A stretch of 64,000 bases of DNA from Pyropia yezoensis (Eukaryota; Rhodophyta; Bangiophyceae; Bangiales; Bangiaceae). Both the position numbers and the translations under genes were made by a program. The stretch is taken from assembly GCA_009829735.1 (NCBI GenBank), contig CM020619.1, positions 28,608,063 to 28,672,062 of the forward strand. The letters run 5' to 3'. The notes beneath the pieces were generated by a model. The model worked only from the letters and a program-made list of their open reading frames with translations, was not told the origin of the DNA and made no database searches. Positions 3,440 to 59,898 of the stretch are shown here, piece by piece (within the stretch, counting starts at the first letter, position 1; the number at the start of each line of letters is the position of its first letter).

Positions 3440-3802
3440 TGTAGCAATATGGTTGTCCGTATTGTGACCCTAATATTAGGGGGGCTACTTCTAATCCTTA
3501 ACTTTCAATTTGAGAGTCCGTACTGGTCACGGTATCTATAAGTTACGTATGACCAGAGGGACTTGCATCTTGGGGTGGAGGGTAGTTAGTAGTGTCTCCG
3601 AGGGTTTATAACGAGGGGGCCGGTGGCGAATCCACCGCCGGCCAAGGTAGAACAACAAACCCCTCCCATTTGGGCTCCCATCTTGGTCCCGTGGCTTGCG
3701 CTCCAAGGACAGCAACCTTGGCCTCCCGGTGACGTTGGTGCCGATCCCCCTTGGTGAGTGTTCCCTGAGAGTGGACGTGCGACGGATTCCTATTGTGCTA
3801 CA
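3440..3802 (+). repeat. 5' LTR of A-inner
   Basis: A 363-bp LTR running from TGTAGCAATATGG to TATTGTGCTACA. A TATA-like GTTTATAACG at about 3,604-3,613 is the best candidate for the element promoter. It is conserved in the other family-A LTRs. Confidence 0.95.
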
Positions 3803-3821: not shown

Positions 3822-4027
3822 CGGGTTTCCGTCACCCTTGTGGTGACGCCGTCTTCGGCCCTGGCACACGGATAGGGATCCGGTCCTTTTCTTGTACTCG
3901 TGGTGTTGCGACCTGATCGATTGTGTTGAGCTTTTACCTGTGACTGTGACCTACTGTTACTCTCCCCAATCTACCCCCTCGCTCTCTTGTTCGTGGTGAT
4001 TGATACGTCGGTTGACTGATTGTGACC

Positions 4028-10865: not shown

Positions 10866-13313
10866 TCAGTGGGTAGACCCACTGCCCGAGGGAGGCCACT
10901 CACGCGTAAGCGCGTAGACCTCCGTGCTCCACCGGTCGGCAACGTCACGACGGTCGACCACCCGAGTTACCTCGGTGCATAGCTGGACGAGGGTGCTGCG
11001 GCCAGCCTCCACGTCCTCCAGAGCTTTCTGGAGGCGGTCCAGCACGCCACCGAAGCAACGCGCTGACCCAACCAGCGCAGCACCTGGGGGGATATCCCCC
11101 CAGCTAACAGAGAGACCCCCACGCATTGCGCGGGTAACAAGGGCGTCAACGCCTTCATACCAGAGACGGGGACCCCCGTCATGTAGGACAGGGGCGGGAG
11201 GTGACACTGGCGCAGCCAGAGGAGCCACAGGAGCCGACACGGCTACCACCGGAGCCGGTGGCACCTGATACGAGGCCCGGTAGGACCCTACCGAAGGGGC
11301 TCCACCGTAACCACGGCGGTACTCCGCCCGACGACGGGACACCTCACGCTCCCCACCCACAGAGCCCCACTCTCGGGGACGACGGCCAACCGCCGCCGGC
11401 ATCGGGTTACCGAACCACGGAGCAAGGACCTGAAGAGGGTCATGGATAACCATGGGAATACCCAGGTCAGGAACGGCCTCGGTGGACGCCCACCCATGGC
11501 AACTAGGCTCACCCGGCTGAGTACGCCGGACACGCAACGAGTGACGAGGCAAGGGGGAAGCCCCAGCCTGCGGGTCCCGGTACGGGGGAAGGGCCAACAC
11601 CCCAGCCCAGTTCACGGCATCGTGAACAGCCAGCAGGGCTTCGAACTCCCGGGCCAACCCGGTCTTGGCAGCTATCAGATCCACGCCCAACTGCGCGATG
11701 TGCCGACGGACACCCGTCGGAAGATGAAACAGACGACCCTGCCGGCGGACGGACAGCAAGAAGGATGAAGCCTGCCCGAGGGTAACCTCAAGGGTGAAGG
11801 TACCCTGCAACGGGTGGACCGGTCGCGAGGCCAACACACTCCCGAAGTAGCGAAGACAGGAGCCGGTGTCAAACCGGAAAGCAGGGGCGGGTTCCCACCC
11901 CTCCTGCCATAGCGGCGGGCGCACGGGAGTGTATACCGGAGCACGACCGTTGCCGGTCTGCAACGCACACGTTATATCCGTGCGGAACGCATCCGCCATG
12001 ACACCATGGTTACGTCGCCAACTCGACGCCGACTTCAACCCCGCCATGGGCGGGTAGGGAGCCGTCAACGACAGATACGGGGGTACCCCCGGGTAGTAGT
12101 CAAAGTCGGGATACCGACCGGTACGGCTCACCGTCTCCCCAAACGCATCCGGCTCCGCCGCCGCCGCAATCCCCCGAGCACTAGCCGGGTAGTCAATCTC
12201 CCGCGGCAACGCGGGGGCAATCAAGTCGCAGACCCCGAAGTTGGGGTCGAGGTAGACCTCACCCCGTCCCACCCGGGTGCGCCAGAGCTGCGCATGCCGG
12301 TCGTCCGGCTGACTCAGGATCCAATGGTGTTCCACCCGGACCGCGTTCGGCTGGTTGACCAGCCGCACCAACTCCCGCTCCCAGCACGGGTCCACCTTGA
12401 CGCGCCGGGAGGATTCTCCACGGGGATGCACCAGGTGGAAGTCCACCCGCATACGCCCATCGGACTCCATCGACTCTTGCACCGTGAGGCCTCGAACCCG
12501 AGCCACCAAGTCGGACACCGACATGGCGGGTTGACCCGCCGCCACGGCGACGCCGCCACCCAACGGGGCAACCCGGGCAGGACCAGGAAGAATCGGGGGC
12601 GCCGGGGGACGCACCACCGGCAGAGGGGCCGACGTCGGAGATGGACGAGGCCGAGGAGGAAGAAGAAGGGCGGGCGCCCGCCCGGAGTAACTCCCGGTGT
12701 CAACCGCCATGGGAGAAGGAGCGTCTTGACCGCTCGACACCCGCGGCACCGCAGGTATGGTACCGGCGCCGGCACCACCCGTCGGCGTAGCCCCCGCCTC
12801 GGAAGTGGAAGGCACTTGGACAGCCTCCGGAGCCGGAGCCCCGGCCGTGCGGACACCCGCACCGTCTTGACCCACCGCACCGGGTGTCGCACCGCCACCA
12901 CCACCCGCGTCAACGTCGGGACCGCCTCGAGGAGTCACCGCCCGGACACCCGGACCACCTTGCCCAGCCGGAGTCGGCTGCGGGTCGCGACCTCCGCCGC
13001 AGGGCGGACCATCTTGAGGTACCTGCGGTGAACCGGCACCGGCACCAGGCCCCATCCGGGCAGCCGGCAGAGAGGGGGTAGAAGCCGCCACGCGCGGTTG
13101 ACCGCCGGGTTGACCTCCGGCCGACGGCACCGTCGTGCCGCTGCACACGGACGACAGTCCTCCGGCCGACAGACGGACGGACACCGCAGGCCCGTCGTCG
13201 TCAGACGAGCTCACCCCGTAACGCGCGGCGTCGGGACCGACAGGCGCGTCGTCCTCCATCTCCTCCCCGATCAGGAGGTCTTCCTCCTCTTCAAGCACCT
13301 GGGGATAGGACAT
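10866..13313 (-). CDS. Antisense ORF of A-inner, unknown 815-aa protein
   Basis: It lies on the strand opposite gag and pol of its own element, downstream of pol and convergent with it. The ATG at 13,313-13,311 starts MSYPQVLEEEEDLL, the same position as in A-outer. The first ~270 residues are acidic then Pro/Ala/Gly-rich and probably disordered. A more ordered part follows from VARVRGLTVQES on. Landmarks are FGSV near residue 488, RLFHLP near 525, LLAVHDAVNW near 560 and a helical C-terminal stretch (GGVLDRLQKALEDVEAG). No signal peptide, membrane span or known catalytic motif is visible. The conserved core resembles the antisense ORF of family B. It is open throughout in this copy, which argues for selection. 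Antisense extra ORFs are known from some plant Gypsy elements (e.g. Grande), but I do not recognise this protein. Confidence 0.8.
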   Translation of the reverse strand: MSYPQVLEEEEDLLIGEEMEDDAPVGPDAARYGVSSSDDDGPAVSVRLSAGGLSSVCSGTTVPSAGGQPGGQPRVAASTPSLPAARMGPGAGAGSPQVPQDGPPCGGGRDPQPTPAGQGGPGVRAVTPRGGPDVDAGGGGGATPGAVGQDGAGVRTAGAPAPEAVQVPSTSEAGATPTGGAGAGTIPAVPRVSSGQDAPSPMAVDTGSYSGRAPALLLPPRPRPSPTSAPLPVVRPPAPPILPGPARVAPLGGGVAVAAGQPAMSVSDLVARVRGLTVQESMESDGRMRVDFHLVHPRGESSRRVKVDPCWERELVRLVNQPNAVRVEHHWILSQPDDRHAQLWRTRVGRGEVYLDPNFGVCDLIAPALPREIDYPASARGIAAAAEPDAFGETVSRTGRYPDFDYYPGVPPYLSLTAPYPPMAGLKSASSWRRNHGVMADAFRTDITCALQTGNGRAPVYTPVRPPLWQEGWEPAPAFRFDTGSCLRYFGSVLASRPVHPLQGTFTLEVTLGQASSFLLSVRRQGRLFHLPTGVRRHIAQLGVDLIAAKTGLAREFEALLAVHDAVNWAGVLALPPYRDPQAGASPLPRHSLRVRRTQPGEPSCHGWASTEAVPDLGIPMVIHDPLQVLAPWFGNPMPAAVGRRPREWGSVGGEREVSRRRAEYRRGYGGAPSVGSYRASYQVPPAPVVAVSAPVAPLAAPVSPPAPVLHDGGPRLWYEGVDALVTRAMRGGLSVSWGDIPPGAALVGSARCFGGVLDRLQKALEDVEAGRSTLVQLCTEVTRVVDRRDVADRWSTEVYALTREWPPSGSGSTH

Positions 13314-13899: not shown

Positions 13900-14262
13900 T
13901 GTAGCAATATGGTTGTCCGTATTGTGACCCTAATATTAGGGGGGCTACTTCTAATCCTTAACTTTCAATTTGAGAGTCCGTACTGGTCACGGTATCTATA
14001 AGTTACGTATGACCAGAGGGACTTGCATCTTGGGGTGGAGGGTAGTTAGTAGTGTCTCCGAGGGTTTATAACGAGGGGGCCGGTGGCGAATCCACCGCCG
14101 GCCAAGGTAGAACAACAAACGCCTCCCATTTGGGCTCCCATCTTGGTCCCGTGGCTTGCGCTCCAAGGACAGCAACCTTGGCCTCCCGGTGACGTTGGTG
14201 CCGATCCCCCTTGGTGAGTGTTCCCTGAGAGTGGACGTGCGACGGATTCCTATTGTGCTACA
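13900..14262 (+). repeat. 3' LTR of A-inner
   Basis: A 363-bp partner of the LTR at 3,440-3,802, with one difference visible. It is followed directly by the target duplication CCGGC. Confidence 0.95.
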
Positions 14263-15223
14263 CCGGCCGGTCCACCCGTTGCAGGGTACCTTCACCCTTG
14301 AGGTTACCCTCGGGCAGGCGTCCTCCTTCTTGCTGTCCGTCCGCCGGCAGGGGCGCCTGTTTCATCTTCCGACGGGTGTCCGTCGGCACATCGCGCAGTT
14401 GGGCGTGGACCTGATAGCTGCCAAGACCGGGTTGGCCCGGGAGTTCGAGGCCCTGCTGGCTGTTCACGATGCCGTGAACTGGGCTGGGGTGTTGGCCCTT
14501 CCCCCGTACCGGGACCCGCAGGCTGGGGCTACCCCCTTGCCTCGTCACTCGTTGCGTATCCGGCGTACTCAGCCGGGTGAGCCTAGTTGCCATGGGTGGG
14601 CGTCCACCGAGGCCGTTCCTGACCTGGGTATTCCCATGGTTATCCATGACCCTCTTCAGGTCCTTGCCCCGTGGTTCGGTAACCCGATACCGGCGGCGGT
14701 TGGCCGTCGTCCCCGAGAGTGGGGCTCTGCGGGTGGGGAGCGTGAGGTGTCCCGTCGTCGGGCGGAGCCCCGCCGGGGTTACGGTGGAGCCCCTTCGGTA
14801 GGGTCCTACCGAGCCTCGTATCAGGTGCCACCGGCTCCGGTGGTAGCCGTGTCGGCTCCTCTGGCTCCTCTGGCTGCGCCAGTGTCCGCTCCCGCCCCTG
14901 TCATACAAGACGGGGGTCCCCGTCTCTGGTATGAGGGCGTTGACGCCCTTGTTGCTCGCGCAATGCGGGAGGGTCTCTCTGTTAGCTGGGGGGATATCCC
15001 CCCAGGTGCTGCGCTAGTTGGGTCAGCGCGTTGCTTCGGTGGTGTGCTGGACCGCCTCCAGAAAGCTCTGGAGGACGTGGAGGCTGGCCGCAGCGCCCTC
15101 GTCCAGCTATGCACCGAGGTAACTCGGGTGATTGACCGTCGTGAGATTGCCGACCGGTGGAGCACGGAGGTATACGCGATTACACGTGAGTGGCCTCCCT
15201 CGGGCAGTGGGTCTACCCACTGA
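14263..15223 (+). pseudogene. Antisense ORF of A-outer, C-terminal part
   Basis: This matches the last ~320 residues of the A-inner antisense ORF, from PVHPLQGTFTLEV through RLFHLP, LLAVHDAVNW and GGVLDRLQKALEDVEAG to the shared end SGSGSTH. It resumes A-outer right after the A-inner insertion. A partial third copy of this tail is at 22,548-22,938, on the right of the N gap. Confidence 0.8.
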
Positions 15224-27544: not shown

Positions 27545-27552
27545 CCTTCCTC

Positions 27553-35155: not shown

Positions 35156-35493
35156 CTCCCCTCTCCTCAGTTCCGACCGACCCGGTCGGCCCTGTGAGGG
35201 GGTGCGCAAACGCACGTCTCGGCGTTGGGGGCGCGACTTGCTGTCCCCCCTTGAGTACGTAACGCGGATGTGAAAGCGGTCACGTTGACCGCCCCTCTCC
35301 TCAAGCTTGCCCACTCGGCAGCTTGCTCTTCCCGGTTCGCACTTCACCATCACCACCACCTCCCCTTCACCTTCCACTGGGCCGCCCCACGCTGGGGAGG
35401 CCACCCGTATACCCACGATCCGAGTCCCCCTCAACTCGAGGCGGGTCTCGTGCCGCTGTAGCCAGGGCGTCTCCCCCCAACTTGGGGAGAGCC

Positions 35494-36660
35494 ATGGCGA
35501 CCCCGGGGGTGGAGACTGACTCTCTTGATGAACGTATGGAGGACACCTCCTACGGTGCAGCGCCCGCCGGGACTTCCGGCGGGGGCTCCGCGGTCGCTCC
35601 GGGGGATGGGACTCCCGCGTCACCCGACTTTGGGTTGGCGGCGGGATCTCCCCCGGAGGCGGGCCGGGTCATCCCACGTGAGGCCTTGGGGCGGTGGTTT
35701 TACCCCGCTTGGCCTCTGTATGAGGAGGGGTTGACTGTTCTTCGCTGTGGCCGACTTGGCACAGCGATTAGTCGGGTATGGGACCGCCTACGGGAGAAGT
35801 ATCCCCGTAGGATCGGGTTCCCTGCCGGCTTCAGGACGGACCAGTTTGCCTTCCTGGACGATGACGAAGTCGAAGACGTACAGCGGGCTAAGGCCATGGT
35901 GAGCCGCGGGGGAACTATCCCGGGTCTCGGCGACTTGCCGACCCTTACTTGGCACGCGGTGGCAACTCGCCCCCCGTACCTTCACGAGGCCGATCCGCAC
36001 ACTCATCACTTTGATGTGCGGATGGAGAAGGACTTCCGGCGAGGTCCCTACTTGGTGACCTCGGCTCAACTTGAGTTTCCGCAGCAGTCCGCTGCTAGAA
36101 AGGAGCAGTACTACCCCAAGAAGCCCGAGTGGTGGCCCCAAGTTGAGGTCTCCTACGGGCTCCCTGCGTTGCTACCACGGTTGCTCGACCACTTCGGCTC
36201 CGTCATGTTGACGGCTGCCCCTGATCACCTGGTGTGGGCCATGTTGGCCACCCAGAGGCTCCTCGAGGTAATGTCGACCTGGGTGTCTTGTGTTCAGCGG
36301 CGGGGGATGCTCTGGCATCTCCCCCCCCGGCTCCTCCAAGGTTTGGAACAGCTCACCCCCCAGCTAGTTGCTGAAGGGTGCTCATCAGGACAACTCACTC
36401 TACTTGAGGAGATGCTCCGCCTCCACAAGTTTATCGAGTGGGAGAGCGTCGAGCACAAGTTGCGCCGCCCCACTCGTGGGCCCAAGGACGATGGCGCACT
36501 TCGCCAGTTCGTATGGGTCGCTCGTGAACTTCGCGACGGCCGTGTGGTCCTACGAGAGGCGTTGGACATCGATGACTACCCGTATGCCCCGGGGGTGGAT
36601 CGCCACACTGCGCCACCCCCGGACAAGGCCATACTTAATGCCGTGCCCTCACATGATGAC
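35494..36660 (+). pseudogene. Family-B antisense ORF, fragment in left part of B1
   Basis: It starts MATPGVETDSLDERMEDTS like the intact copy at 49,898-47,955 and stays collinear for about 385 residues, including EALGRWFYPAWPLYEE, HFGSV, LWHLPPRLLQG and LHKFIEWESVEHKL. It lacks the Arg/Ser-rich C-terminal part and passes into integrase sequence of the other B1 fragment. Confidence 0.8.
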
Positions 36661-37269
36661 CGAACAACTTGTCGTCCCCGCATCTCTCAAGGACAGTATC
36701 CTTGAGAGGGAGCACAACGCTCCCACGGGTGGACACCTGGGGTGTAGTAAACTCTACCAGACCCTGAGGACCATGTACTACTGGCCGTCCATGGTGGTGG
36801 ACATCTATAGTTGGGTGGCTGCCTGCACAAGTTGTGCGCAGAACCGTCTGATGGAACGGCGGCCTACTACGGCTATGCTACTGTACCCGGCCAAGGAGCC
36901 CTTTGTCGCGTTGGAAATGGACATCCTTGGGCCACTGCCTGTGACCGAGGAGGGCAACCAGTACCTCCTGGTCATCTGCGATCGCTTCACGAAACTTACG
37001 CGAGCGATCCCACTGGCAGAGATCACGGCCATGTCGGTCGTGTCAGCCTTCCTAGATCACTGGGTTGCCGCGTATGGCATCCCAGATAGTACACTATCGG
37101 ACAATGGACCGCAATTTGCGTCTGTACTGTTTCAGGGAGTGCTGGATATGTTGGGGGTTGAGGCAAACTATGCCACCGCCTACCACCCACAAACTAATGG
37201 GCAGGTGGAGCGCATCAACAAAACTATTGTTCGGCAGCTGCGCCACTATGTGAGTGAGCACATGAAAAC
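36661..37269 (+). pseudogene. pol: Family-B integrase fragment, B1 (left of B2 insertion)
   Basis: Integrase sequence from VPASLKDSILEREH, through the zinc-finger part CTSCAQNRLM and the catalytic region ALEMDILGPLPV and SDNGPQFASV, to NGQVERINKTIV. It is interrupted by B2, whose target duplication AAAAC lies at 37,265-37,269. The rest of the domain continues at 47,102. Confidence 0.85.
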
Positions 37270-37738
37270 TGTGGCAGTATTGACCCTCAGGTAGGGGGGC
37301 AACACGTGCCATGCAAGGGGCGGCAGGCCACTAGCCTGATCCGTTCCTCCCCCTGCATTTGGGTCCATATTCCCTAAGTTTGGGATAGTTAGCTTAGTAG
37401 TAAATCCAACTTGGATTTCAGGGTTTTCTGCATTTATCGTCTTGAATTTTCGTGTGGCCCGGTGGGCAGGTGCTGGGGTGGGAGATTCTGAGTGGCGAGA
37501 TTCTGAGTGGACCCTGGGGGGATAAGGGGAGGGACAGCGGGGCTTGGCCCTGCGTCCCCGTCCCGACCAAGAAACTGTTGGACCACACACCATCCTCTTG
37601 TTTGTCCGTGGGGGGTTTGCCCCACAACAGGGACAGAGTGTGTGCGACTTGCACTTCTTCCGGTTCCCCCGACACGGGAGGCAGCCCTAGTACACCGCCC
37701 CAACTTGGGTGCCGTGTGTGCTTGTGGTTGTTGCCACA
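37270..37738 (+). repeat. 5' LTR of B2
   Basis: A 469-bp LTR from TGTGGCAGTATTGACC to GTTGTTGCCACA, followed two bases later by the PBS at 37,741-37,758 (TGGTGGAGCAGCAGGGGA). Confidence 0.93.
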
Positions 37739-37758
37739 TTTGGTGGAGCAGCAGGGGA

Positions 37759-38209: not shown

Positions 38210-38308
38210 CACAGGTAAACTTTACCTCCGGGTGCACCCGGGTGTAGGGGGCCCTCTGTCTCAGAGGAACGGTGGTCTTGGACCGTGTCATACGGATCGT
38301 CAGCCAAC

Positions 38309-40255
38309 ATGGCTTACTCGGACCCCCCGTCGTCCGGGGAGTACACGGGTGACGCACGTACTTCAGTGCCTTTGAATACTGGTGAGACACAGGTGGGTTT
38401 ACCTGGGGTCGCAGAGGGACTAGAGGTCCCTCAAGCCAGCAGGACTGGAAGTACGGGCGGGCAACAGGCCACCCCGACTCAGTCGGGAGTTCACTCGGGT
38501 GACACTTCTGATGTGGGTGGGCCGAAGTCTGGCCACCGTGTGGTATACTCAACGGGAACGTCCCAAGGGGTGAGGACTGTCCCCGCGGGTTCCACTCGGG
38601 TTGGAGCCAACTTTGGCTTGGAGTCGTCGCCAACTAGGCTTTCGGAGGACGGTGGACCTCCGTTGGTCGGCGATGGGCTCGCGCCCATGCCCCCGGTTGA
38701 GACCCCTGAGGAACGTGGTTACCCCTCAGGTGGACTCCCGGAGGCGGACCGAGACTCAACTGGAGTCGTCAATCCCCTCCTCGCGGAAACTGTCCGTCGG
38801 GAGGCAACCAATGTGTTGCGGCAAACTTTGCCGGACCTGGTGGTCACGATGACGAATACTATTCTGAATCAGATTGTGGCGAGTTTGCCAGATGGCCTTA
38901 ATGTCCAAACCGGATTGGGGCTTTCGAGCCCGCAGGCGCAGGGGGAATCCCCCCTTACGCCTATCTCTGGTCGCCCCGAACTGGGGGCGACACCTGTGAC
39001 TCCCAACGAGGGAGCCACACCATACTCGGTGGGGCGTACGCCCTTCACGGGGGAGTTCCCCCCGGAAACGCCGGCGGCTGCGCCAAGCGCGCCGCGCCGG
39101 ACTACAGGCACTGAGAGTGAACTTACCCCAGTGCCACAGCGGCTGTTCCCTCAACGTGAGGTGCCGCCCAAGATCCAGGTAGCCAACCCGGTCTACCAGA
39201 GGATCTTTGACTGTGAGACCTACGCCCTCCACAACAAGTCGGTGGCGTATGGTCCTGACCAGGCCCGAGCCATGGGCCGTGCCAAGAAGAATGCACTTCA
39301 TTCTTTTGGGCACAAAGCGGAGTGGGACGGAACTCCCCCCCTCCGTGTCTTTGAGTTCCTACGTCGTTTCACAAAAGCCTGTGACGACAATGCCATAAGT
39401 GAAGGCATGGCTTTTTACATGCTACAGGAGTTTACGAAGGGCGACCTACGGACAGAACTTATGTCCGTCATGCCCAGCTCCTCAAGTGGAGGCGCTGGAG
39501 AGGTGACGTCCTATTTGGAGCTCGTCAACTGGTTGTTGAGAGCCATGGTTGATGAGGCAGCGTTGGCTTCTCAAGTCGAGGAGTTTACGCAAGCCCATCA
39601 GGAAGAGGCGGAGGACGAGTTGTCCTTTGCGGAGCGAGTCCGTAAGCTCAACAATCTTTGTGGGTTTCTTCATCCACAAGCTGTGGTGAAGAGTCGGTTT
39701 GTGGAGGGACTCCATTGGTCAGTCCGGATGGAGACCCGGGAGCATAACACTGCCCGGGCGACCCTGGCCGAGTTGGCCAGGTTCGCCTATCGCAGAGGCG
39801 AGGCCTACCGCAAGTTGCGGGAGGAACAACGCCAGGAGCGTCAGGCCGAGTCGGCCAAGGAACGGGAGGAGGCGCGCCAGGCCAGAGAGTTGAGAGAGGC
39901 ACGCCGAATCCGCAAGGAGAGGGTGGTAGCTGCCGTGGGAACTTCCCAGGGTATCCCTTCGTCTTCCCCAGTTGGGAAGACCCCTCCCGGAACGGACCAT
40001 CGGTGTTGGAACTGCAACTCCGATGGTCACTGGGCATATGATTGCCCCAAGTTGAGTAAACGCATCCAACAACTTGTTAGGAATGCGAGTAAAAAGTCGG
40101 CTACGAACGAAGTACGTTCACGCCGCGAGGGTGGGTCTCGACCGGTCGTTGCGGTCGCCACACCCTCGGCGGAGGAGGCGGACACGTCGTCCTCGGACTC
40201 GTCGTCTTCCTCCCCGCCCTCAGATTCGGACGCCAAGTCGGCGGGAAACGAATGA
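38309..40255 (+). CDS. gag: Gag polyprotein of B2
   Basis: 648 residues from the ATG at 38,309 (MAYSDPPSSG). The same start region is recognisable in B0 near 59. A Thr/Pro/Gly-rich N-terminal part (about 1-270) is followed by a helical capsid-like region (RVFEFLRRF, YMLQEFTKGD, WSVRMETREHNT, about 340-500), a charged Arg/Glu-rich helix and a CCHC knuckle CWNCNSDGHWAYDC near residue 570. The tail is Ser/Asp-rich. The stop overlaps the pol ATG in the four bases ATGA, which would suit termination-reinitiation. Open throughout. Confidence 0.9.
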   Translation: MAYSDPPSSGEYTGDARTSVPLNTGETQVGLPGVAEGLEVPQASRTGSTGGQQATPTQSGVHSGDTSDVGGPKSGHRVVYSTGTSQGVRTVPAGSTRVGANFGLESSPTRLSEDGGPPLVGDGLAPMPPVETPEERGYPSGGLPEADRDSTGVVNPLLAETVRREATNVLRQTLPDLVVTMTNTILNQIVASLPDGLNVQTGLGLSSPQAQGESPLTPISGRPELGATPVTPNEGATPYSVGRTPFTGEFPPETPAAAPSAPRRTTGTESELTPVPQRLFPQREVPPKIQVANPVYQRIFDCETYALHNKSVAYGPDQARAMGRAKKNALHSFGHKAEWDGTPPLRVFEFLRRFTKACDDNAISEGMAFYMLQEFTKGDLRTELMSVMPSSSSGGAGEVTSYLELVNWLLRAMVDEAALASQVEEFTQAHQEEAEDELSFAERVRKLNNLCGFLHPQAVVKSRFVEGLHWSVRMETREHNTARATLAELARFAYRRGEAYRKLREEQRQERQAESAKEREEARQARELREARRIRKERVVAAVGTSQGIPSSSPVGKTPPGTDHRCWNCNSDGHWAYDCPKLSKRIQQLVRNASKKSATNEVRSRREGGSRPVVAVATPSAEEADTSSSDSSSSSPPSDSDAKSAGNE

Positions 40256-43200
40256 CCGTTGGGGCTGGTCGTCCGAAGCTCACAACGGCAGCCTCGGCCA
40301 AGTGGGCCAGGAGGACGAACCAACCGTGCCGGATACTGCGGCGACCTAAGGGAGTCCGCCCACCTCGGGTAGGACTCCCCAAGAACGTAAACCCACGTCG
40401 GGTCATCGCGGTGCTGACGGGTGAGAACTTCCAGGTGGCTGGACGGGTGCAACTTGCCCCCGGCCGTGCATGCTGTACCCGTATCGTACTTGATACCGGA
40501 TCAGGAGCCTCCTTGATACGCAAGTCGCTATTACCAAAGGAGGTGAAGCTCCAACGCTGGAGGTCCAAAGCTGACCATATGATTGACATCAATGGTGGGG
40601 TACTTCCCATCGTTGGTGCCGTGACCCTACCAACTAGGTTGGGGACCCATGAGGTCGACGTGACCTATGGCGTAGTTGAGAATATATCGGTACCCCTGCT
40701 TCTGGGTACCCCTTATGTTGTTACACAAGTGCCTTTGATTTGTGGCCCTGAGTACTGGGTGAAGTTGATGAATGGGGAGACTATCCCCATCCTTGGTAAG
40801 GGAAAGTCTGTGGCTCCTGTGACAGTCTCACAGTCGAAGCCTGTTTGTTCGGTGAGGGAAGGGTTTACTGCTGCCCTGCGTTTAGCCCGCGAAGTCACGT
40901 TGCCCCCCAACTCGGTGGCGCACGTTGATGTTGTAACTGATTTTACGGGGAACGGGTTGGTGCACCCTCACCCCCGTCTTGCTCGCAAGCACCAAGTGCA
41001 TGTTGCCCTTGGCACGATGGACTCCAAAGCCGGAGTCCCGTGGAGGATCCAGGTGATGAACCTGAGCCCGACGCCCAAGTACTTCAAGTCGGGAGCCAAG
41101 TTCGGCTATATCGACCAACACGAGGGACCGGTAGTAGCGGTCACCCTCAACGCGGGCGCAAGTAGCGACCCGAAGTCCGGAAAGGAGAAGCATCGAGCCA
41201 AGTCGGCCGCCTCTCCTCGACCCCATGTGAACATGGAGGGTGTCCCCCCCAGGTTGAGGGTTCAAGTTGAACGCCTCTTGGACCAATATCACAAGTTGTG
41301 GGATGGTCAATTGGGACTCATGAGAGCCACCCAACACCGGATCGAGTTGAAGCCCGGTGCACCCCCTATACGTCAACAACCGTATAGGGGAGGACCTCGT
41401 TCAAGGGCCCTCGTTAAGGAGCAAGTTGCTCGCATGGAGGCCCTCGATGTGATCGAGGCCAGCAACGCCGAGTGGGCGAGTCCGGTGGTTATCGTCCCCA
41501 AAGTTGATGGGACCCCCCGGTTTTGTATCGACTACCGTAAGCTCAACGAGAGCACGGTGAAGGACAGTTATCCCCTACTTAGGATGGATGACTGTCTGGA
41601 CTCTCTGGGGGAGGCAAACGTGTTCTCTACCCTGGACTGTAACGCGGGGTACTGGCAAATTCCCATTTCCCCGGAGGACAGGCATAAAACTACCTTTACC
41701 TGTCACTGTGGTACCTACCAGTGCAAGCGTCTACCGTTTGGTCTGTGTAACGCGCCGGCAACTTTCCAGCGCGCTATGGACATGATTCTGGCCGGAGTAC
41801 GGTGGCAAATCTGTCTTGTGTACCTAGACGATATCATTGTGTTCTCCCGAAGTCCGGAGGAACACATTGGCCATCTTGGCCAGGTGTTCAAGCTACTTGC
41901 TGACGCCGGTGTGTCACTGAAGGCGAGTAAGTGCCACCTCTTCACTCAAGAGGTGGAATACTTGGGACATGTTGTCCGTCCGGGGCGTCTCAGTGTTAAC
42001 GAGAAGAACTTGTGGGCCATTCGTAAGGCTCAGTACCCCCGGACCCAGACCCAGATGAGGACCTTCCTCGGGATATGTAACGTGTACCGACGTTTCACCA
42101 AAGGCTTCGCCAAGGTGGCGAAGCCGTTGAATGAGCTAGTGAGCTCAACGCTACCGAAGAACCTGCCTCCCCCAAGTCGGGTGGAGCAGGAATCCTTTGA
42201 GACTCTTCGGGACCTTCTGCTGAAGCCCCCCATCTTGGCTATTCCCAGGTTGGGAGGCCACTACATCCTGGATGTGGACGCTAGCTACGACCAACTTGGT
42301 TGTGTGTTGCTTCAGCAGCAGCCGGACAAGGAGTACTTGCCGGTGGGATACTTTAGTAAGGGGCTGAACTCGGCCGAGAAGAACTACGGAGTCACCGAGT
42401 TGGAAGGACTCGCAGTGGTGTGGGCGGTGACGTCACTTCGTCACTACCTGGAGGGTGAGAAGTTCCTCATCCGCTGTGACCACCGCGCGTTGCAGTTCAT
42501 CTTTAAGACGGACTGTACGAACACTCGTCTCAACCGGTGGAGGGTGCGACTGGCACCCTTCAACTTTGACATTGAATACCGACCTGGCAGGCAACATGCC
42601 CTTGCCGACGGCCTCTCTCGGGTACCGACCGAGGGGCTGGACACTAACCCAGTCGATGAGGACATCCCCATCGTGGGGGTAGTCACGCGCTCGGGTCAGG
42701 CGTTGAACCCCGAGGCGCCAGGGAACAAGAAGTACTTGCCCCTGTCCCTGGACGAGGTGGTGAATGCCCAGGCCGAGGATCCCTTCTGCAAGTCGCAGAG
42801 GGATATACTGGATACAGTGGTAGAGACGCGTTTCTTTCTGGGAGACGATGGCCTCCTCATGAGGAGGGGGGTATTCCAGGGGACCGAACAACTTGTCGTC
42901 CCCGCATCCCTCAAGGACAGTATCCTTGAGAGGGAGCACAACGCTCCCACGGGTGGACACCTGGGGTCTAGTAAACTGTACCAGACCCTGAGGACCAGGT
43001 ACTACTGGCCGTCCATGGTGGTGGACATCTACAATTGGGTGGCTGCCTGCACAAGTTGTGCACAGAATCGTCTGATGGAACGGCGGCCTACTACGGCTAT
43101 GCTATTGTTCCCGGCCAAGGAGCCCTTCGCCGCGTTGGCGATGGACATCCTTGGGCCACTGCCTGTGACCGAGGAGGGCAACCAGTACCTCCTGGTCATC

Positions 43201-44235
43201 TGTGACCGCTTCACGAAACTTACGCGAGCGATCCCACTGGCAGAGATCACGGCCATGTCGGTCGTGTCAGCCTTCCTAGATTACTGGGTTGCCGCGTATG
43301 GCATCCCAGATAGTACACAATCGGACAATGGACCGCAATTTGCGTCTGTACTGTTTCAGGGAGTGCTGGATATGTTGGGGGTTAAGGCAAACTATGCCAC
43401 CCCCTACCACCCACAAACTAATGGGCAGGTGGAGCGCTTCAACAAAACTATTGTTAGGCAGCTGCGCCACTATGTGAGTGAGCACGTGAAGAGGTGGGAC
43501 CAATACATTTCTATCCTTACTACTGCCTACAATTCGCAGGTTCACTCATCTACAGGGGAAGTACCCCTCGCTTTTGTGACCCCCCGTCGCGTGCAGTCTA
43601 TTGCCGTGCGGCGGTCGCTCCCAACTAGGGAGGATGGTGGCAGTACGCCTACTCCTACTGAGAGTAAGGCGGAGTTCGCCGCTAGGCTTGAAAACCTCAT
43701 CCCTAAAGTCAGGGCTGAGATGGACAAAGCACAAAAGCGCTACAAGCGTACCTTTGACAAAAAGGTGCGCAATGCTAAGAATGTCCCCGAGCAGGGTGAC
43801 TGGGTGCTGGTACACTCGCACACCCCAACTGGGGGTAAGCTGGTATTCCAGACGAAGGGACCGTACCAGGTCCTTCGTACAGATGGGCGGCGCTTCACCA
43901 TCGAAAGTGACGATGGGGTCCGCACAGTAAACGGACAGGACGTGGTCAAAGTTGCACCACCGCCTGCAGGCGACCCAGCTTGGGCGCGTGCGTTGGAAGC
44001 GTGGCGCCTCCCCTCACTGCCTGCGGCCAAACAGGGCCCGCAGGAGTACGTGTTCCATAAGTTCATCGACCACGGCTGGGATGAGGACACTGACCGCCTC
44101 ATGCTGAGGGTGCGCTGGTTCGGCTAGAAGGCCAAGGATGATACGTGGGAGTATGTGGAGGACCTTCCCGCTGAGAAGGTCCGGGCATACTGTGCCCGGA
44201 ATGAGATAAACCCTAACAGCCCTCCCTCAACGTGA
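40252..44235 (+). pseudogene. pol: Pol polyprotein of B2 (PR-RT-RH-IN-chromodomain)
   Basis: About 1,330 residues long. Parts in order: retropepsin-like protease with DTGSGAS near residue 80; RT with FCIDYRKLN and YLDD near 530; RNase H (LDVDASYDQLG to IRCDHRALQF, about 670-750); integrase with zinc region CTSCAQNRLM near 940 and catalytic parts AMDILGPLPV, SDNGPQFASV and NGQVERFNKT (about 960-1,070); and a chromodomain-like C-terminus (LMLRVRWFG, DDTWEYVEDL). The domain order is identical to family A, but the sequences are clearly different. It shares an ATGA overlap with gag. Nearly whole, with about one break. Confidence 0.92.
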
Positions 44236-44346
44236 GGGAAGGCTGAGTAACAGTGCCAAGAGAGTGCTTCAAGTCGAAGTGGTACGCAGAGTGGCTTTTA
44301 ACTACAGCCCTAACCCTCACACTCTCACAACAAAGGCAGCTGCCAA

Positions 44347-46289
44347 CTAGGCACGCATGCTAGACTCTCCCACTCCACGGCCCTCGCCGTCACGTGGAGG
44401 CGAGCGGCGAGACCCACGCCGATAACGGTCTCCACTCGTTGGAGGGGGCGGCGGCTCCAAGTCGGAACCGTCGCGCCCCTCACGGTCGCGCAAGTGGCGA
44501 CGACCGTGGCCACTCTTCTGCTTGGTCTTGCGCGCAAGTTGGCGACGCAGACGCTGGACAGACTCCGTCTCCGACGGGGTAGAGGACTCCGAAACGGAGT
44601 AAAACAACTCGTCTTCCGATACGGAAGGAGAGCGCCGCGAGTGTCGGCGACGACGGCGAGGAGGTGAGTATGCCCGGCTCGCGCGACGTTTGCCACGCCC
44701 AAGTGGGGCTGGCTGGGGCATAATAGCCCCAATGCGAGCCAACTCGGCTGTCATAAACTCCGCCACCGACTCGCAACTCGCGGTCGCCAGTGCAGTACGA
44801 ACGCGCTCCTCAAATTGAGGAGTCTCGGAACTTTGAAGGGTTGCGGTCGACGCGGCCAACCAGAAAATGGTGCGCACCAACGTGGTGATCATCATCTCTG
44901 AGGTTAGAGGCGTGGGCGGCAACACCAACTTGGGGTATACCGTCAGGAGGGTGGCCCCCAAGTTGGGGGACACCGGGGTGGAAGACTCCACGGCCACGCT
45001 GATCGGGATGCTCCCGTGAGGTTGGAAAGGAACAGGAGGAAGCGAAGGGGCCCGCCGAGGTGGCGGTACCCGGGTGTAACTGCGACCCCGACTTGGGGCC
45101 CCCGCAAAAGGTTGAGTCATATGGTCATCATAGGACGGCACGGCCATAACCATGGGCTTGTCCGGGGGTGGCGCAGTGTGGCGATCCACCCCCGGGGCAT
45201 ACGGGGAGTCCCCGATGCTCAACCCCTCTCGTAGGACCACACGGCCGTCGTGAAGTTCACGAGCGACCCACACGAACTGGCGAAGTGCGCCATCGTCCTT
45301 GGGCCCACGAGTGGGGCGGCGCAACTTGTGCTCGACGCTCTCCCACTCGATAAACTTGTGGAGGCGGAGCATCTCCTCAAGTAGAGTGAGTTGTCCTGAT
45401 GAGCACCCCTCAGCAACTAGCTGAGGGGTAAGCTGTTCCAAACCTTGGAGGAGCCGGAGGGGGAGATGCCAGAGCATCCCCCGCTGCTGAACACAAGACA
45501 CCCAGGTCGACATGACCTCGAGGAGCCACTGGGTGGCCAACATGGCCCACACCAGGTGATCAGGGGCAGCCGTCAACATGACGGAGCCGAAGTGGTCAAG
45601 CAACCGTGGCAACAACGCCGGGAACTCGTAGGGGACCTCAACTTGAGGCCACCACTCGGGCTTCTTCGGATAGTACTGCTCCTTACTAGCAGCGGACCGC
45701 TGCGGAAACTCAAGTTGAGCCGAGGTCACCAAGTAGGGACCTCGCCGGAAGACTTTCTCCATCCGCACATCAAAGTGATGAGTGTGCGGATCCGCCTCGT
45801 GGAGGTACGGTGGGCGAGTTGCCACAGCGTCCCACGTGAAGGTCGGCAAGTCGCCGGGACCCGGGATAGTTCCCCCGCGGTCCACCATGGACTTGGCCCG
45901 CTGAACGTCCTCAACCTCCTCATCGTCCAGGAAGGCAAACTGGTCCGTCCTGAAGCCGGCAGGGAACCCGACCCTACGGGGATACTTCTCCCGTAGGCGG
46001 TCCCATACCCGGCCCATCGCTGCGCAAAGTCGGCCACAGCGAAGAACAGTCAGCCCCTCCTCATAGAGAGGCCAAGCGGGGTAAAACCACCGCCCCAAGG
46101 CCTCACGCGGACAACTTGTCCCGCCTCCGGGGGAGACCCCGCCGTCAACCCAAAGCCGGGTGACGCGGGAGTCCCGTCCCATGGAGCGATCGCGGAGCCC
46201 CCGCCGGAAGTTCCGGCGAGTGCTGCCCCGTAGGAGGTGTCCTCCATGCGCTCGTCAAGAGAGTCCGTCTCCACTCCCGGAGTCGCCAT
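44347..46289 (-). pseudogene. Antisense ORF of B2 (unknown protein, about 650 aa)
   Basis: Lies 110 bp beyond pol and runs toward it on the opposite strand, the same arrangement as in family A. The ATG at 46,289-46,287 starts MATPGVETDSLDERMEDTS. Its core contains EALGRWFYPAWPLYEE, HFGSV, LWHLP and LHKFIEWESVEHKL. The C-terminal ~150 residues are Arg/Ser-rich (SPPRRRRRHSRRSPSVSEDE) and end near ESSMRA. About one break is seen. Compare the open copy at 47,955-49,898. No known domain is recognised. Confidence 0.75.
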
Positions 46290-46608: not shown

Positions 46609-46627
46609 GGAACTGAGGAGAGGGGAG
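46609..46627 (+). other. Polypurine tract of B2
   Basis: GGAACTGAGGAGAGGGGAG directly precedes the 3' LTR. The same tract precedes the right LTR of B1 and, in complement, follows the left one. Confidence 0.75.
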
Positions 46628-47096
46628 TGTGGCAGTATTGACCCCCAGGTAGGGGGGCAACACGTGCCATGCAAGGGGCGGCAGGCCACTAGCCTGATCC
46701 GTTCCTCCCCCTGCATTTGGGTCCATGTTCCCTAAGTTTGAGATAGTTAGCTTAGTAGTAAATCCAACTTGGATTTCAGGGTTTTCTGCATTTATCGTCT
46801 TGAATGCTCGTGTGGCCCGGTGGGCAGGTGCTGGGGTGGGAGATTCTGAGTGGCGAGATTCTGAGTGGATCCTGGGGGGATAAGGGGAGGGACAGCGGGG
46901 CTTGGCCCTGCGTCCCCGTTCCGACCAAGAAACTGTTGGACCACACACCATCCTCTTGTTTGTCCGTGGGGGGTTTGCCCCACAACAGGGACAGAGTGTG
47001 TGCGACATGCACTTCTTCCGGTTCCTCCGACACGGGAGGCAGCCCTAGTACACCGCCCCAACATGGGTGCCGTGTGTGCTTGTGGTTTTTGCCACA
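46628..47096 (+). repeat. 3' LTR of B2
   Basis: A 469-bp partner of 37,270-37,738 with about 11 visible differences. The target duplication AAAAC follows. Confidence 0.93.
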
Positions 47097-47101
47097 AAAA
47101 C

Positions 47102-47843
47102 GGGGGACCAATACATTTCTATTCTTACCACTGCCTACAATTCGCATGTTCACTCATCTACCGGGGAAGTACCCCTCGCTTGTGTGACCCCCCGTCGCGT
47201 GTGGTCTTTTGCCGTGCGGCGGCCGCTCCCAACTAGGGAGGATGGTGGCAGGACGCCTACTCCTTTTGAGAGTAAGGCGGAGTTCGCTGCTAGGCTTGAA
47301 AACCTCATCCCTAAAGTCAGGGCTGAGATGGACAAAGCACAAAAGCGCTACAAGCGTACCTTTGACAAAAAGGTGCGCAATGCTAAGCATGTCCCCGAGG
47401 AGGAAGACTTGGTACTGGTTCACTCACATACCCCAACTGGGGGTAAGTTGGTATTCCACACGAAGGGGCCGTACCAGGTCCTTCGTACAGATGGGCGGCG
47501 CTTCACCATCGAAAGTGACGATGGGGTCCGCACAGTAAACGGACAGGACGTGGTCAAAGTTGCACCACCGCCTGCAGGCGACCCAGCTTGGGCGCGTGCG
47601 TTGGAAGCGTGGCGCCTCCCCTCACTGCCTGCGGCCAAACAGGGCCCGCAGGAGTACGTGTTCCATAAGTTCATCGACCACGGCTGGGATGAGGACACTG
47701 ACCGCCTCATGTTGAGGGTGCGCTGGTTCGGCTAGAAGGCCAAGGATGATACGTGGGAGTATGTGGAGGACCTTCCCGCTGAGAAGGTCCGGGCATACTG
47801 TGCCCGGAATGAGATAAACCCTAACAGCCCTCCCTCAACGTGA
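47102..47843 (+). pseudogene. pol: Family-B integrase C-terminal part and chromodomain, B1 (right of B2)
   Basis: Continues B1 integrase after the B2 insertion with DQYISILTTAYNSHVHSS and runs to the chromodomain-like end (LMLRVRWFG, DDTWEYVEDLPAEKVRAY). Very close to 43,500-44,235 of B2. About one break of its own besides the insertion. Confidence 0.85.
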
Positions 47844-47954
47844 GGGAAGGCTGAGTAACAGTGCCAAGAGAGTGCTTCAAGTCGAAGTGGTACGCACAGC
47901 GGCTTTCAACTACAGCCCTAACCCTCACACTCTCTCAACAAAGGCAGCTGCCAA

Positions 47955-49898
47955 CTAGGCATGCATGCTAGACTCTCCAACCCCACGGCCCTCGCCCTCA
48001 CGTGAAGGCGAGCGGCGAAACCCACGTCGATAACGCTCCCCACTAGTCGGCGGGGCTGGCGGCTTCAAGTTGGAGCCGTCGCGCCCCTCACGGTCGCGCA
48101 AGTGGCGACGACCGCGGCTATCCTTCTGCTTGGTCTTGCGCGCAAGTTGGCGACGCAGACGCCGGACCGACTCCGACTCTGACGGAGTAGAGGACTCCGA
48201 GACGGAGTCAGACAACTCGTATTCCGATACGGAGGGAGAGCGCCGCGAGCGTCGGCGACGACAGCGAGGAGGCGAGTATGCCCGGCTCGCCCGACGTTTG
48301 CCACGCCCAAGTGGGGCTGGCTGGGGCACAATAGCCCCGATGCGAGCCAACTCGGCCGTCATAAACTCCGCTACCGACTCGCAACTCGCTGTCGCCACCG
48401 CAGTACGAACGCGCTCCTCAAATTGAGGAGTCTCGGAACTTTGAAGGGTTGCGGTCGACGCGGCCAACCAGGAAATGGTGCGCACCAACGTGGTGATCAT
48501 CATCTCTGAGGTTAGAGGCGTGGCCGGTAACACCAACTTGGGGTAAACCGTCAGAAGAGTGGCCCCCAAGTTGGGGGACACCGGGGTGGACGACTCAACG
48601 GCCACGCTTATCGGGATGTCCCCGTGCTGCTGGTAGGGGACAGGAGGAAACGGGGGGGCACGCCGAGGTGGCGGGACCCGGGTGTAACTGCGACCCCTAC
48701 TCGGGGCCCCCGCAGTGGGTTGAGTCATATTGTCATCGTGAGAGGGCACGGCCATCACCATGGCCTTGTCCGGGGGCGGCGCAGGGGGGCGATCCATCCC
48801 CGGGGCATACGGGTAGTCCCCGATGCCCAGCCCCTCTCGTAGTACCACACGGCCGTCGTGAAGTTCACGAGCGACCCATACGAACTGGCGAAGTGCGCCA
48901 TCGTCCTTGGGCCCGCGGGTGGGGCGGCGCAACTTGTGCTCGATGCTCTCCCACTCGATGAACTTGTGGAGACGGAGCATCTCCTCAAGTAGAGTGAGTT
49001 GTCCTGATGAGCACCCCTCAGCAACTGGATGAGGGGTGAGCTGTTCCAAACCTTGGATAAGCCGGGGGGGGAGATGCCAGAGCATCCCCCGCTGCTGAAC
49101 ACAAGACACCCAGGTCGACATTACCTCGAGGAGCCACTGGGTGGCCAACATGGCCCACACCAGGTGCTCCGGGCTAGCCGTCAACATGACGGAGCCGAAG
49201 TGGTCGAGCAACCGTGGTAGCAACGCAGGGAGCCCGTAGGAGACCTCAACTTGGGGCCACCACTCGGGCTTCTTGGGGTAGTACTGCTCCTTTCTAGCAG
49301 CGGACTGCTGCGGAAACTCAAGTTGAGCCGAGGTCACCAAGTAGGGACCTCGCCGGAAGTCCTTCTCCATCCGCACATCAAAGTGATGAGTGTGCGGATC
49401 GGCCTCGTGAAGGTACGGGGGGCGAGTTGCCACCGCGTGCCAAGTAAGGGTCGGCAAGTCGCCGAGACCCGGGATAGTTCCCCCGCGGCTCACCATGGCC
49501 TTAGCCCGCTGTACGTCTTCGACTTCGTCATCGTCCAGGAAGGCAAACTGGTCCGTCCTGAAGCCAGCAGGGAACCCGACCCTACGGGGATACTTCTCCC
49601 GTAGGCGGTCCCATACCCGACTAATCGCTGTGCCAAGTCGGCCACAGCGAAGAACAGTCAACCCCTCCTCATACAGAGGCCAAGCGGGGTAAAACCACCG
49701 CCCCAAGGCCTCACGTGGGATGACCCGGCCCGCCTCCGGGGGAGATCCCGCCGCCAACCCAAAGTCGGGTGACGCGGGAGTCCCATCCCCCGGAGCGACC
49801 GCGGAGCCCCCGCCGGAAGTCCCGGCGGGCGCTACACCGTAGGAGGTGTCCTCCATACGTTCATCAAGAGAGTCAGTCTCCACCCCCGGGGTCACCAT
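47955..49898 (-). CDS. Antisense ORF of B1, unknown 647-aa protein (open copy)
   Basis: This is the only fully open copy of the family-B antisense ORF, 647 residues from the ATG at 49,898-49,896. It has an acidic start (SLDERMEDTS) and a Gly/Ser/Pro linker to about residue 60. An ordered part follows from EALGRWFYPAW, with HFGSV near 233, RGMLWHLP near 272 and LHKFIEWESIEHKL near 311. A Pro-rich linker is followed by a helical stretch (SCESVAEFMTAELARIGAI) and an Arg/Ser-rich tail (RRRRSRRSPSVSEYE) ending in more basic sequence. The tail suggests nucleic-acid or nuclear association, which is inference. The core matches the family-A antisense ORF at the same spacing. There is no signal peptide or membrane span, so an envelope role is unlikely. 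Confidence 0.8.
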   Translation of the reverse strand: MVTPGVETDSLDERMEDTSYGVAPAGTSGGGSAVAPGDGTPASPDFGLAAGSPPEAGRVIPREALGRWFYPAWPLYEEGLTVLRCGRLGTAISRVWDRLREKYPRRVGFPAGFRTDQFAFLDDDEVEDVQRAKAMVSRGGTIPGLGDLPTLTWHAVATRPPYLHEADPHTHHFDVRMEKDFRRGPYLVTSAQLEFPQQSAARKEQYYPKKPEWWPQVEVSYGLPALLPRLLDHFGSVMLTASPEHLVWAMLATQWLLEVMSTWVSCVQQRGMLWHLPPRLIQGLEQLTPHPVAEGCSSGQLTLLEEMLRLHKFIEWESIEHKLRRPTRGPKDDGALRQFVWVARELHDGRVVLREGLGIGDYPYAPGMDRPPAPPPDKAMVMAVPSHDDNMTQPTAGAPSRGRSYTRVPPPRRAPPFPPVPYQQHGDIPISVAVESSTPVSPNLGATLLTVYPKLVLPATPLTSEMMITTLVRTISWLAASTATLQSSETPQFEERVRTAVATASCESVAEFMTAELARIGAIVPQPAPLGRGKRRASRAYSPPRCRRRRSRRSPSVSEYELSDSVSESSTPSESESVRRLRRQLARKTKQKDSRGRRHLRDREGRDGSNLKPPAPPTSGERYRRGFRRSPSREGEGRGVGESSMHA

Positions 49899-50234
49899 GG
49901 CTCTCCCTTAGTAAGGGAGAGACGCCCTGGCTGCAGCTGCACGAGACCCGCCTTGAGTTGAGGGGGGCTCGGATCGTGGGTAGATGGGTGGCCTCCCCAG
50001 CGTGGGGCAGCCCAGGGGAAGGTGAAGGGGATGTGTTGGTGATGTTGAAGTGAGAACCGGGGAGAGCAAGCTGCTAAGTGGGCAAGCTTGAGGAGAGGGG
50101 CGGTCAACGTGACCGCCTCCACGTCCACGTTACGTACCCTGGGGGACAGCAAGTCGCGCCCCCAACGCCGAGACGTGCGTTTACGCGCCCCCTCACAGGG
50201 CCGACCGGGTCGGTCGGAACTGAGAAGAGGGGAG

Positions 50235-50705
50235 TGTGGCAGTATTGACCCCCAGGTAGGGAGGCAGCACGTGCCATGCAAGGGGCGGCAGGTCACTAGC
50301 CTGACCCGTTCCTCCCCCTGCATTTGGGTCCATATTCCCTAAGTTTGGGATAGTTAGCTTAGTAGTAAATCCAACTTGGATTTCAGGGTTTTCTGCATTT
50401 ATCGTCTTGAATTTTCTTGTGGCCCGGTGGGCAGGTGCTGGGGTGGGAGATTCTGAGTGGCGAGATTCTGAGGGGACCCTGGGGGGATAAGGGGAGGGAC
50501 AGCGGGGCTTGGCCCTGCTTCCCCGTCCCGACCAAGAAACTGTTGGACCACACACCATCTTCTTGTTTGTCAGTGGGGGGATTGCCCCACAACAGGGATA
50601 GAGTGTGTGCGACTTGCACTTCTTCCGGTTCCCCCCCGACACGGGAGGCAGCCCTTGTGCACCGCCCCAACTTGGGTGTCGCGTGTGCAAGAGGTTTTTG
50701 CCACA
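50235..50705 (+). repeat. Family-B LTR, right end of B1
   Basis: A 471-bp LTR in plus orientation preceded by the family-B polypurine tract, so it is a 3' LTR. It abuts family-C gag sequence at 50,706. Confidence 0.9.

Positions 50706-59866: not shown

Positions 59867-59898
<32 letters not shown>

What the first reader, a model, noticed from the sequence alone, without database searches (positions are those of the whole stretch)
47955..49898. Families A and B carry homologous antisense ORFs: a conserved third gene in two chromovirus lineages
The 647-aa antisense ORF of family B and the 815-aa one of family A sit at the same place (after pol, converging with it) and share landmarks at matching spacing. 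FGSV to the H of HLP is 40 residues in A and 41 in B. HLP to QL is the same in both (11 residues). HLP to the His-x4-Trp pair (HDAVNW in A, HKFIEW in B) is 34 and 36. Both also begin with an acidic Met-Glu-Asp motif. The pol proteins of A and B are clearly diverged, so this suggests an ancestral, retained accessory protein family. This is the best candidate for an undescribed system here.
Basis: partly seen in the sequence, partly recalled or inferred. Interest (0 to 1): 0.87.

Follow-up and report, generated by a model that had tools for sequence, protein, structure and literature searches.

The report
Backward third gene in seaweed retrotransposons
Three families of jumping genes in what is probably a red seaweed genome each carry, besides the usual two genes, a third gene that points the opposite way and is kept by natural selection; such backward extra genes are known from plants and fungi, but this protein matches no family in the libraries searched and its job is untested.

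Summary
Confirmed and extended. The antisense ORFs of family A (815 aa) and family B (647 aa) exist as stated, and the landmark spacings are exact. Their cores are homologous: BLASTP 45.4 bits, best of 300 shuffles 22.3; profile-profile score 46.4, best of 200 column shuffles 31.5.

A third family, C, elsewhere in the same genome has the same gene between pol and the 3' LTR and matches B strongly (155 bits, E 3e-44). A-type relatives at 46-61% identity are annotated as hypothetical proteins in Pyropia vietnamensis, so the host is probably a Bangiales red alga.

The frame is protein-coding: dN/dS median 0.13 among B copies, 70% of differences at third codon positions; constraint is weaker in C. 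A, B and C form one integrase clade; nine other Gypsy loci sampled show no relative.

The kind is known: antisense accessory ORFs between pol and the 3' LTR (Grande, RIRE2, Retand, Boty; PMC7264820). New, by the searches made, are the protein family and its presence in red algae. The likeliest role, a nuclear accessory regulator, is inferred.

The parts
47955..49898 (-). Antisense ORF of element B2, 647 aa (the finding)
   Evidence: open; 68 of 68 scored genome matches span all 647 residues, 58 without a stop (only best candidates are scored); dN/dS below 1
44347..46182 (-). Antisense ORF of element B1, 611 aa
   Evidence: against the B2 ORF dN 0.068, dS 0.244
35323..36705 (+). Antisense ORF fragment of a third B copy lying in the opposite orientation
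10866..13313 (-). Antisense ORF of family A, 815 aa (open frame runs on upstream to 13838)
   Evidence: 55 of 55 scored genome matches span all 815 residues, 53 without a stop (only best candidates are scored)
1924..3444 (+). Antisense ORF of an older A copy, cut by insertion of the A element at 3440
14156..15223 (+). Open frame over the other part of the interrupted older antisense ORF (homology from 14264)
3440..3802 (+). 5' LTR of element A (363 bp)
   Evidence: 99.7% identical to the 3' LTR; target duplication CCGGC
13900..14262 (+). 3' LTR of element A
4022..6211 (+). gag of element A (zinc-knuckle-like motif, sub-threshold)
6220..10386 (+). pol of element A: protease-like (sub-threshold), RT, RNase H, integrase, chromodomain-like C-terminus (sub-threshold)
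37270..37738 (+). 5' LTR of element B1
   Evidence: 97.7% identical to the 3' LTR; target duplication AAAAC
46628..47096 (+). 3' LTR of element B1
38285..40255 (+). gag of element B1 (CCHC zinc knuckle)
40252..44127 (+). pol of element B1: RT, RNase H, integrase; frame ends inside the region that is chromodomain-like in A and C
36658..37266 (+). Left piece of element B2 (pol), split from the rest by B1
47097..50705 (+). Right piece of element B2: end of pol, antisense ORF, 3' LTR at 50235-50705

Best explanation
It is a real third gene of a clade of Ty3/Gypsy LTR retrotransposons, probably in a Bangiales red alga. It is encoded antisense between pol and the 3' LTR, was present before families A, B and C split, and has been passed on with the element since. 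It codes for a soluble protein of about 640-815 aa: a low-complexity N-terminus (acidic start and Pro/Gly-rich in A), a conserved core of about 250-300 aa (PPYL or RPYL, (F/Y)GS[VS], G-x-L-[FW]-HLP, HxxxxW), a Pro-rich linker and a C-terminal segment that in B is Arg/Ser-rich. Shown: homology, position, coding constraint. Best supported by the tree: vertical inheritance. Inferred: it is transcribed from a promoter near the 3' LTR, as reported for maize Grande gene23 (PMC7264820), and its product acts in the nucleus as an accessory factor that helps or regulates the element's own replication (transcript handling, nuclear entry or chromatin engagement), and can act in trans. The gene itself I hold at about 0.9, the nuclear-regulator role at about 0.35.
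For: Homology. Third family, same place, inside LTRs with 3 differences in 541 bp. Second alga. Coding constraint in B: 308 of 435 copy pairs (those over 3% divergent) give median dN/dS 0.13, range 0.011-0.317, codon-position differences 4788/3529/19229; B2 against L002 gives 0.25 in frame and 0.38-2.2 in the other five frames. Coding constraint in A: 0.33 over 461 codons, 0.16 in the core, against 0.12 for A gag and A pol. Copies: 58 of 68 (B), 53 of 55 (A) and 56 of 66 near-full-length (C) scored matches are open. Tree: A+B+C on one side of a 100/100 branch, nine other Gypsy integrases on the other; a profile of the four cores finds nothing in those nine loci (best E 1.5 in 536 frames) but 2e-135 and 3e-133 in C loci L042 and L041, whose C relative is in the profile. 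Not membrane-like: maximum 19-residue hydropathy 1.2-1.5. Arg 24% and Ser 18% in B residues 528-647.
Against: No expression data were available. No significant Pfam, NCBIfam or PDB match (best DUF6214 in A, E 0.089, below its cut-off), and no structure could be predicted, so nothing points directly at a biochemical activity. Basic clusters: A has none, B two in its tail, C two elsewhere, so the nuclear cue is not shared. Codon usage does not help: in A the antisense frame resembles pol less (0.51) than four of the five other frames; in B it resembles it most (0.68). C pairs show weaker constraint (0.35-0.48, three pairs, one row with a shifted N-terminus), and B2 against the third, fragmentary B copy gives 0.53. 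A-C similarity alone is modest (30.4 bits against a shuffled maximum of 27.3). L035, a C copy inside a 1346-codon open frame covering its integrase, lacks antisense residues 28-416, and one other copy runs through the same junction, so copies without the core can spread, perhaps helped in trans. Copy lists hold the best-scoring candidates only, hence are biased towards intact copies.
Confidence: 0.6

Rival explanations
1. The antisense unit works mainly as RNA: an antisense transcript pairs with the element's RNA and tunes its own silencing, and the protein is secondary.
For: Convergent layout with pol; PMC7264820 (parts 1 and 2 of 3 read) raises this possibility for plant elements.
Against: Constraint acts on the amino-acid sequence: third-position excess, dN/dS median 0.13 (B) and 0.33 (A, one pair), and protein homology is kept at 24% identity between A and B.
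Confidence: 0.1
2. It is an envelope-like or other particle/structural protein (the usual third gene of retroviruses), placed in antisense.
For: Position between pol and the 3' LTR is that of env (established knowledge; PMC7264820).
Against: No hydrophobic segment of membrane type in A, B or C; no profile similarity to the elements' own Gag (best probability 2.3), while Gag A and Gag B match each other at 97.0.
Confidence: 0.1
3. It is an inverted fragment of the element's own integrase/chromodomain, as described for REM1 of Chlamydomonas.
For: REM1 is described as a chromovirus with a truncated integrase in reverse frame (PMC2774666, passage seen).
Against: A keeps an integrase in sense, C's aligns with A's over 444 columns, and both have a chromodomain-like end; the antisense proteins match no integrase or chromodomain model.
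Confidence: 0.04
4. It is a host gene captured by an ancestral element, still carrying out a host-like function.
For: P. vietnamensis relatives are annotated as host hypothetical proteins.
Against: The genome matches listed are high-copy repeats, and those whose surroundings were read (window A and B; C in L041) lie in elements. The protein searches returned seven relatives in all; whether they lie in elements could not be read, and these searches reach only relatives sharing short exact words.
Confidence: 0.15
5. Chance: long open frames on the opposite strand of GC-rich DNA, with accidental motif spacing.
For: GC is about 56-67% over the element-rich part apart from one window and many spurious ORFs exist in the window.
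Against: Homology, shuffles, dN/dS, a third family and a second species.
Confidence: 0.02

Closest known systems
Plant antisense accessory ORFs between pol and 3' LTR (aORF-3R): maize Grande gene23, rice RIRE2, Silene Retand, PvRetro13
   Same: Antisense, between pol and the 3' LTR, conserved in most copies; the Grande protein is nuclear with its own promoter (PMC7264820, parts 1 and 2 of 3 read; PMC11963269, passages).
   Different: Retand proteins carry Transposase_28 (PF04195); no such match here. Different host phylum. Retand is non-chromovirus; A and C have chromodomain-like pol ends. Sequences of the plant proteins were not compared directly.
Boty-like retrotransposons of Botrytis cinerea with antisense gene brtn
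   Same: Additional antisense gene in a Gypsy element (reference and methods passages in PMC8365987; PMC7264820).
   Different: Fungal; protein sequence not available here, so relationship untested.
REM1 of Chlamydomonas reinhardtii
   Same: Algal chromovirus with a reverse-frame coding stretch (PMC2774666 passage; its position after pol is recalled; paper not held).
   Different: Described as a truncated integrase (GPY/F plus chromodomain) in reverse frame; the protein here matches neither.
HTLV-1 HBZ antisense gene
   Same: Antisense gene of a retroelement with a nuclear product (passage in PMC11963269).
   Different: No sequence relation tested; analogy only.

Membership tests
Antisense accessory ORF of LTR retrotransposons (aORF-3R) | ORF antisense to gag-pol, between pol and 3' LTR, inside the element | tested here: met
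   A and B1; C, one copy with both LTRs read
Antisense accessory ORF of LTR retrotransposons (aORF-3R) | Present in most copies with conservation like other element genes | tested here: inconclusive
   Conservation: dN/dS 0.13 (B), 0.33 (A), 0.35-0.48 (C), against 0.12 for A gag/pol. Share of all copies not measured: 68, 55 and 66 near-full-length matches come from capped lists, and a C deletion form exists
Antisense accessory ORF of LTR retrotransposons (aORF-3R) | Transcribed from its own antisense promoter | not testable with these tools
   No RNA data
Retand TRP28 (PF04195) proteins | Transposase_28 domain | tested here: not met
   No match for A, B, C or P. vietnamensis P0006 at E up to 5, within HMMER's filters
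REM1-type inverted integrase fragment | GPY/F module or chromodomain in the antisense ORF | tested here: not met
   No Chromo or integrase match
Envelope-like third gene | Transmembrane segment | tested here: not met
   Maximum 19-residue hydropathy 1.37 (A), 1.23 (B), 1.53 (C)
Chromovirus | Chromodomain at the integrase C-terminus | tested here: inconclusive
   A: 15 bits, E 0.024; C: 18.3 bits, E 0.0023; Pfam cut-off 25.1; B none, frame ends early
Chromovirus | RT phylogeny inside the chromovirus clade | not tested

The most novel reading that the evidence does not exclude
A previously unrecognised protein family, fixed in one Gypsy clade since before the A/B/C split and present in at least two Pyropia-type red algae, acts as a trans-acting nuclear factor of the element (a functional counterpart of HBZ/Rev-type accessory proteins that arose independently in red algae), expressed from the strand opposite to gag-pol.
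Probability: 0.3. Interest if true: 0.7.

Novelty: new variant of a known kind. Interest (0 to 1): 0.5.

Why it matters
Antisense accessory genes of LTR retrotransposons are described from flowering plants and a fungus in the review read (PMC7264820), with no agreed function. Here three diverged families in one genome, and relatives in a second species, carry the same gene under purifying selection; in B and in the A core it comes close to that measured on A's gag and pol. That argues that such genes matter to the element, and it gives conserved residues to test. It also shows that relatives of an element protein are entering red algal gene sets as host hypothetical proteins.

Tried and rejected
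Rejected: the Met-Glu-Asp motif as shared evidence (not aligned). Inconclusive: codon usage as evidence for translation. Rejected: relation to the elements' own Gag. Nothing significant found: Pfam, NCBIfam and PDB sequence searches; viral contigs and prokaryote genomes (41 and 21 pattern hits, none a relative by tblastn); Rfam and tRNA scans of the window. The B-core protein search found only one relative, 91% identical. The first control search of the other Gypsy loci used no C query and also missed the C-type remnant in L035; it was repeated with C and a core profile. The first hhalign script carried an unsuitable option and returned no null scores; it was repeated. A wider hunt for a fourth family was not made, because searches of this genome score only the best candidates and the many A, B and C copies fill the list.

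Full report
What is there. The window lies in a 107.5 Mb genome made almost wholly of three large contigs. Family A has an element with both LTRs at 3440-14262: 363-bp LTRs (1 difference), target duplication CCGGC, gag 4022-6211, pol 6220-10386 and an antisense ORF 10866-13313. Family B has an element B1 with both LTRs at 37270-47096 (469 aligned LTR bases, 11 differences, target duplication AAAAC), gag 38285-40255, pol 40252-44127, antisense ORF 44347-46182. B1 sits inside the pol of an older element B2, whose right piece (47097-50705) carries the antisense ORF of the finding, 47955-49898. A third B copy in the opposite orientation (34685-36660) carries a fragment of the same ORF. The A element itself is inserted in the antisense ORF of an older A copy.

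Check of the observation. The ORFs and their spacings are as described. BLASTP of the whole proteins gives 42.0 bits. The cores alone give 45.4 bits, E 5e-10, with 300 shuffles reaching at most 22.3 and the reversed sequence 25.4. The P. vietnamensis proteins P0006 and P0007 align to B over a similar stretch with 38.1 and 40.4 bits; P0008 and P0009, which lack parts of the core, give only 20.8 and 21.6. Profile-profile comparison of A-type against B gives probability 80.8, E 1.3e-5; A-type against B+C gives probability 69.4, score 46.4, with 200 column shuffles reaching at most 31.5 and the reversed profile 20.1. As a yardstick, Gag A and Gag B match at probability 97.0 in the same call.

A third family. 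An integrase zinc-binding search of the genome scored 150 of 3595 candidates and listed 150 matches, all 73.8 bits or more; the window's own A and B pols (61.6 and 65 bits in a protein scan) are not among them. I fetched 10 of the 150. Nine belong to another Gypsy group. A profile of the A, B, C and P. vietnamensis cores finds no relative in them (536 frames of 50 codons or more, best E 1.5). tblastn with seven queries gives best E 0.010 there, over 37 residues; in C loci L041 and L042 the B and C cores reach 2e-33 or better, the A protein 1e-4. Some of the nine contain nested A-family pieces, their 3' LTRs were not delimited, and about 3.7 kb after pol was read, so this control is modest. The tenth, L035, has an A/B-type integrase but keeps only the ends of the antisense gene (C residues 1-27 and 417-623). 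Four more copies of its family show a long antisense ORF in the same place, about 638 aa in L041 and L043. In L041 the order is pol end 1491, antisense ORF 1622-3535, LTR 4711-5251, and the matching 5' LTR was found upstream (541 bp, 99.4%); the target duplication reads CCGCC. C against B gives 155 bits, E 3e-44, 36% identity; C against A gives 30.4 bits, only a little above 27.3 in 200 shuffles. The genome search with the C protein returned 70 rows, 66 of near-full length, 56 of these without a stop.

A deletion form. L035 lies in a 1346-codon open frame covering its integrase and so has a long pol, yet lacks the antisense core. Besides L035 itself, one of the other 44 rows of the DNA search runs unbroken through its junction (C3:27809607, 93%). 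Copies without the core have therefore spread at least once. This weighs against a strict need in cis and fits a product that can act in trans; neither was tested.

Selection. For B, 30 copies were compared. Of 435 pairs the 127 with 3% divergence or less were left out; the other 308 give median dN/dS 0.13 (0.011-0.317) and differences of 4788, 3529 and 19229 at codon positions 1, 2 and 3. Pairs are not independent, and 6 of the 30 copies hold one stop, skipped. Against L002 the B2 ORF has 0.25 in its own frame and 0.38, 0.83, 1.06, 1.97 and 2.18 in the other five. For A, the window ORF against the older copy gives 0.33 over 461 codons and 0.16 in the core (237 codons), against 0.12 for A gag and A pol. 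For C, three pairs give 0.35-0.48; one row, L042, has a shifted N-terminus. B2 against the third, fragmentary B copy gives 0.53. Constraint is clear in A and B and weaker in C.

Descent. An integrase tree (12 rows) places A, B and C on one side of a 100/100 branch with the nine other loci on the other; B and C are sisters with 83/79 support. Long branches are flagged by the program. Pol identity (A-B 42% over 1243 columns; integrase B-C 62%, A-C 38%) ranks as the antisense identity does. One origin before the A/B/C split, with vertical descent, is the simplest reading.

Host. The closest named relatives are four hypothetical proteins of Pyropia vietnamensis at 46-61% identity, a Bangiales red alga. 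The three protein searches otherwise returned only three unnamed proteins at 91-96% identity. Viral contigs and prokaryote genomes gave no relative.

What it may do. The proteins have a low-complexity N-terminus, a conserved core, a Pro-rich linker and a C-terminal segment. There is no membrane-type segment and no significant domain match. B ends in an Arg/Ser-rich tail with basic clusters; A has none. [quoted passage not shown] I therefore infer a nuclear accessory protein; its exact action is unknown. The structure models and fold search could not be made.

What is known. Antisense ORFs between pol and the 3' LTR are reviewed in PMC7264820; in Retand 97% of clusters carry a Transposase_28 antisense ORF (PMC11963269, abstract and passages). 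Botrytis Boty carries brtn (PMC8365987, passages). REM1 of Chlamydomonas has a reverse-frame truncated integrase (PMC2774666, passages; the REM1 paper itself is not held). The passages seen of the Chlamydomonas (PMC8226300) and Ectocarpus (PMC12477816) genome papers mention no antisense accessory ORF. In ten searches of open-licence papers no listed title or abstract start describes one in red algae; subscription papers were not searched.

Verdict. A real, conserved, protein-coding antisense gene in a Gypsy clade of what is probably a red alga: a known kind of arrangement with a protein family that matches nothing in the libraries searched. Function is inferred.

Noticed in passing
14851-22047 and 22548-29748: Two 7.2-kb stretches of A-family sequence, 99.8% identical and in the same orientation, flank a run of N: probably an assembly duplication around a scaffold gap rather than two insertions.
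   Followed up: no
3803-3840, 37739-37776 and L045:1987-2010: A, B and C have very similar sequence just after the 5' LTR (TTGGTGGAGCAGCAGGGGA in A and B, two changes in C), the place of the primer-binding site; the tRNA was not identified.
   Followed up: partly
54001-60000: GC 75-78% in the three 2-kb windows, dense in GGC-type repeats, with many overlapping ORFs on both strands; differs sharply from the element-rich part.
   Followed up: no
P0006-P0009 (Pyropia vietnamensis MMPV_ proteins): Relatives of the retrotransposon antisense protein are annotated as host hypothetical proteins, some with parts of the core missing.
   Followed up: partly
L031-L034, L036-L040: Nine of ten fetched Gypsy loci belong to a second group (integrase motif HDYHD.P..GHMGV where that part was read) with no relative of the antisense gene.
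   Followed up: partly
L035:1559-2255: A C-family copy inside a 1346-codon open frame covering its integrase lacks the core of the antisense gene, and one other copy shares the junction: a deletion form that has spread.
   Followed up: partly
40252-44127: The B1 pol frame ends inside the region that is chromodomain-like in A and C.
   Followed up: no
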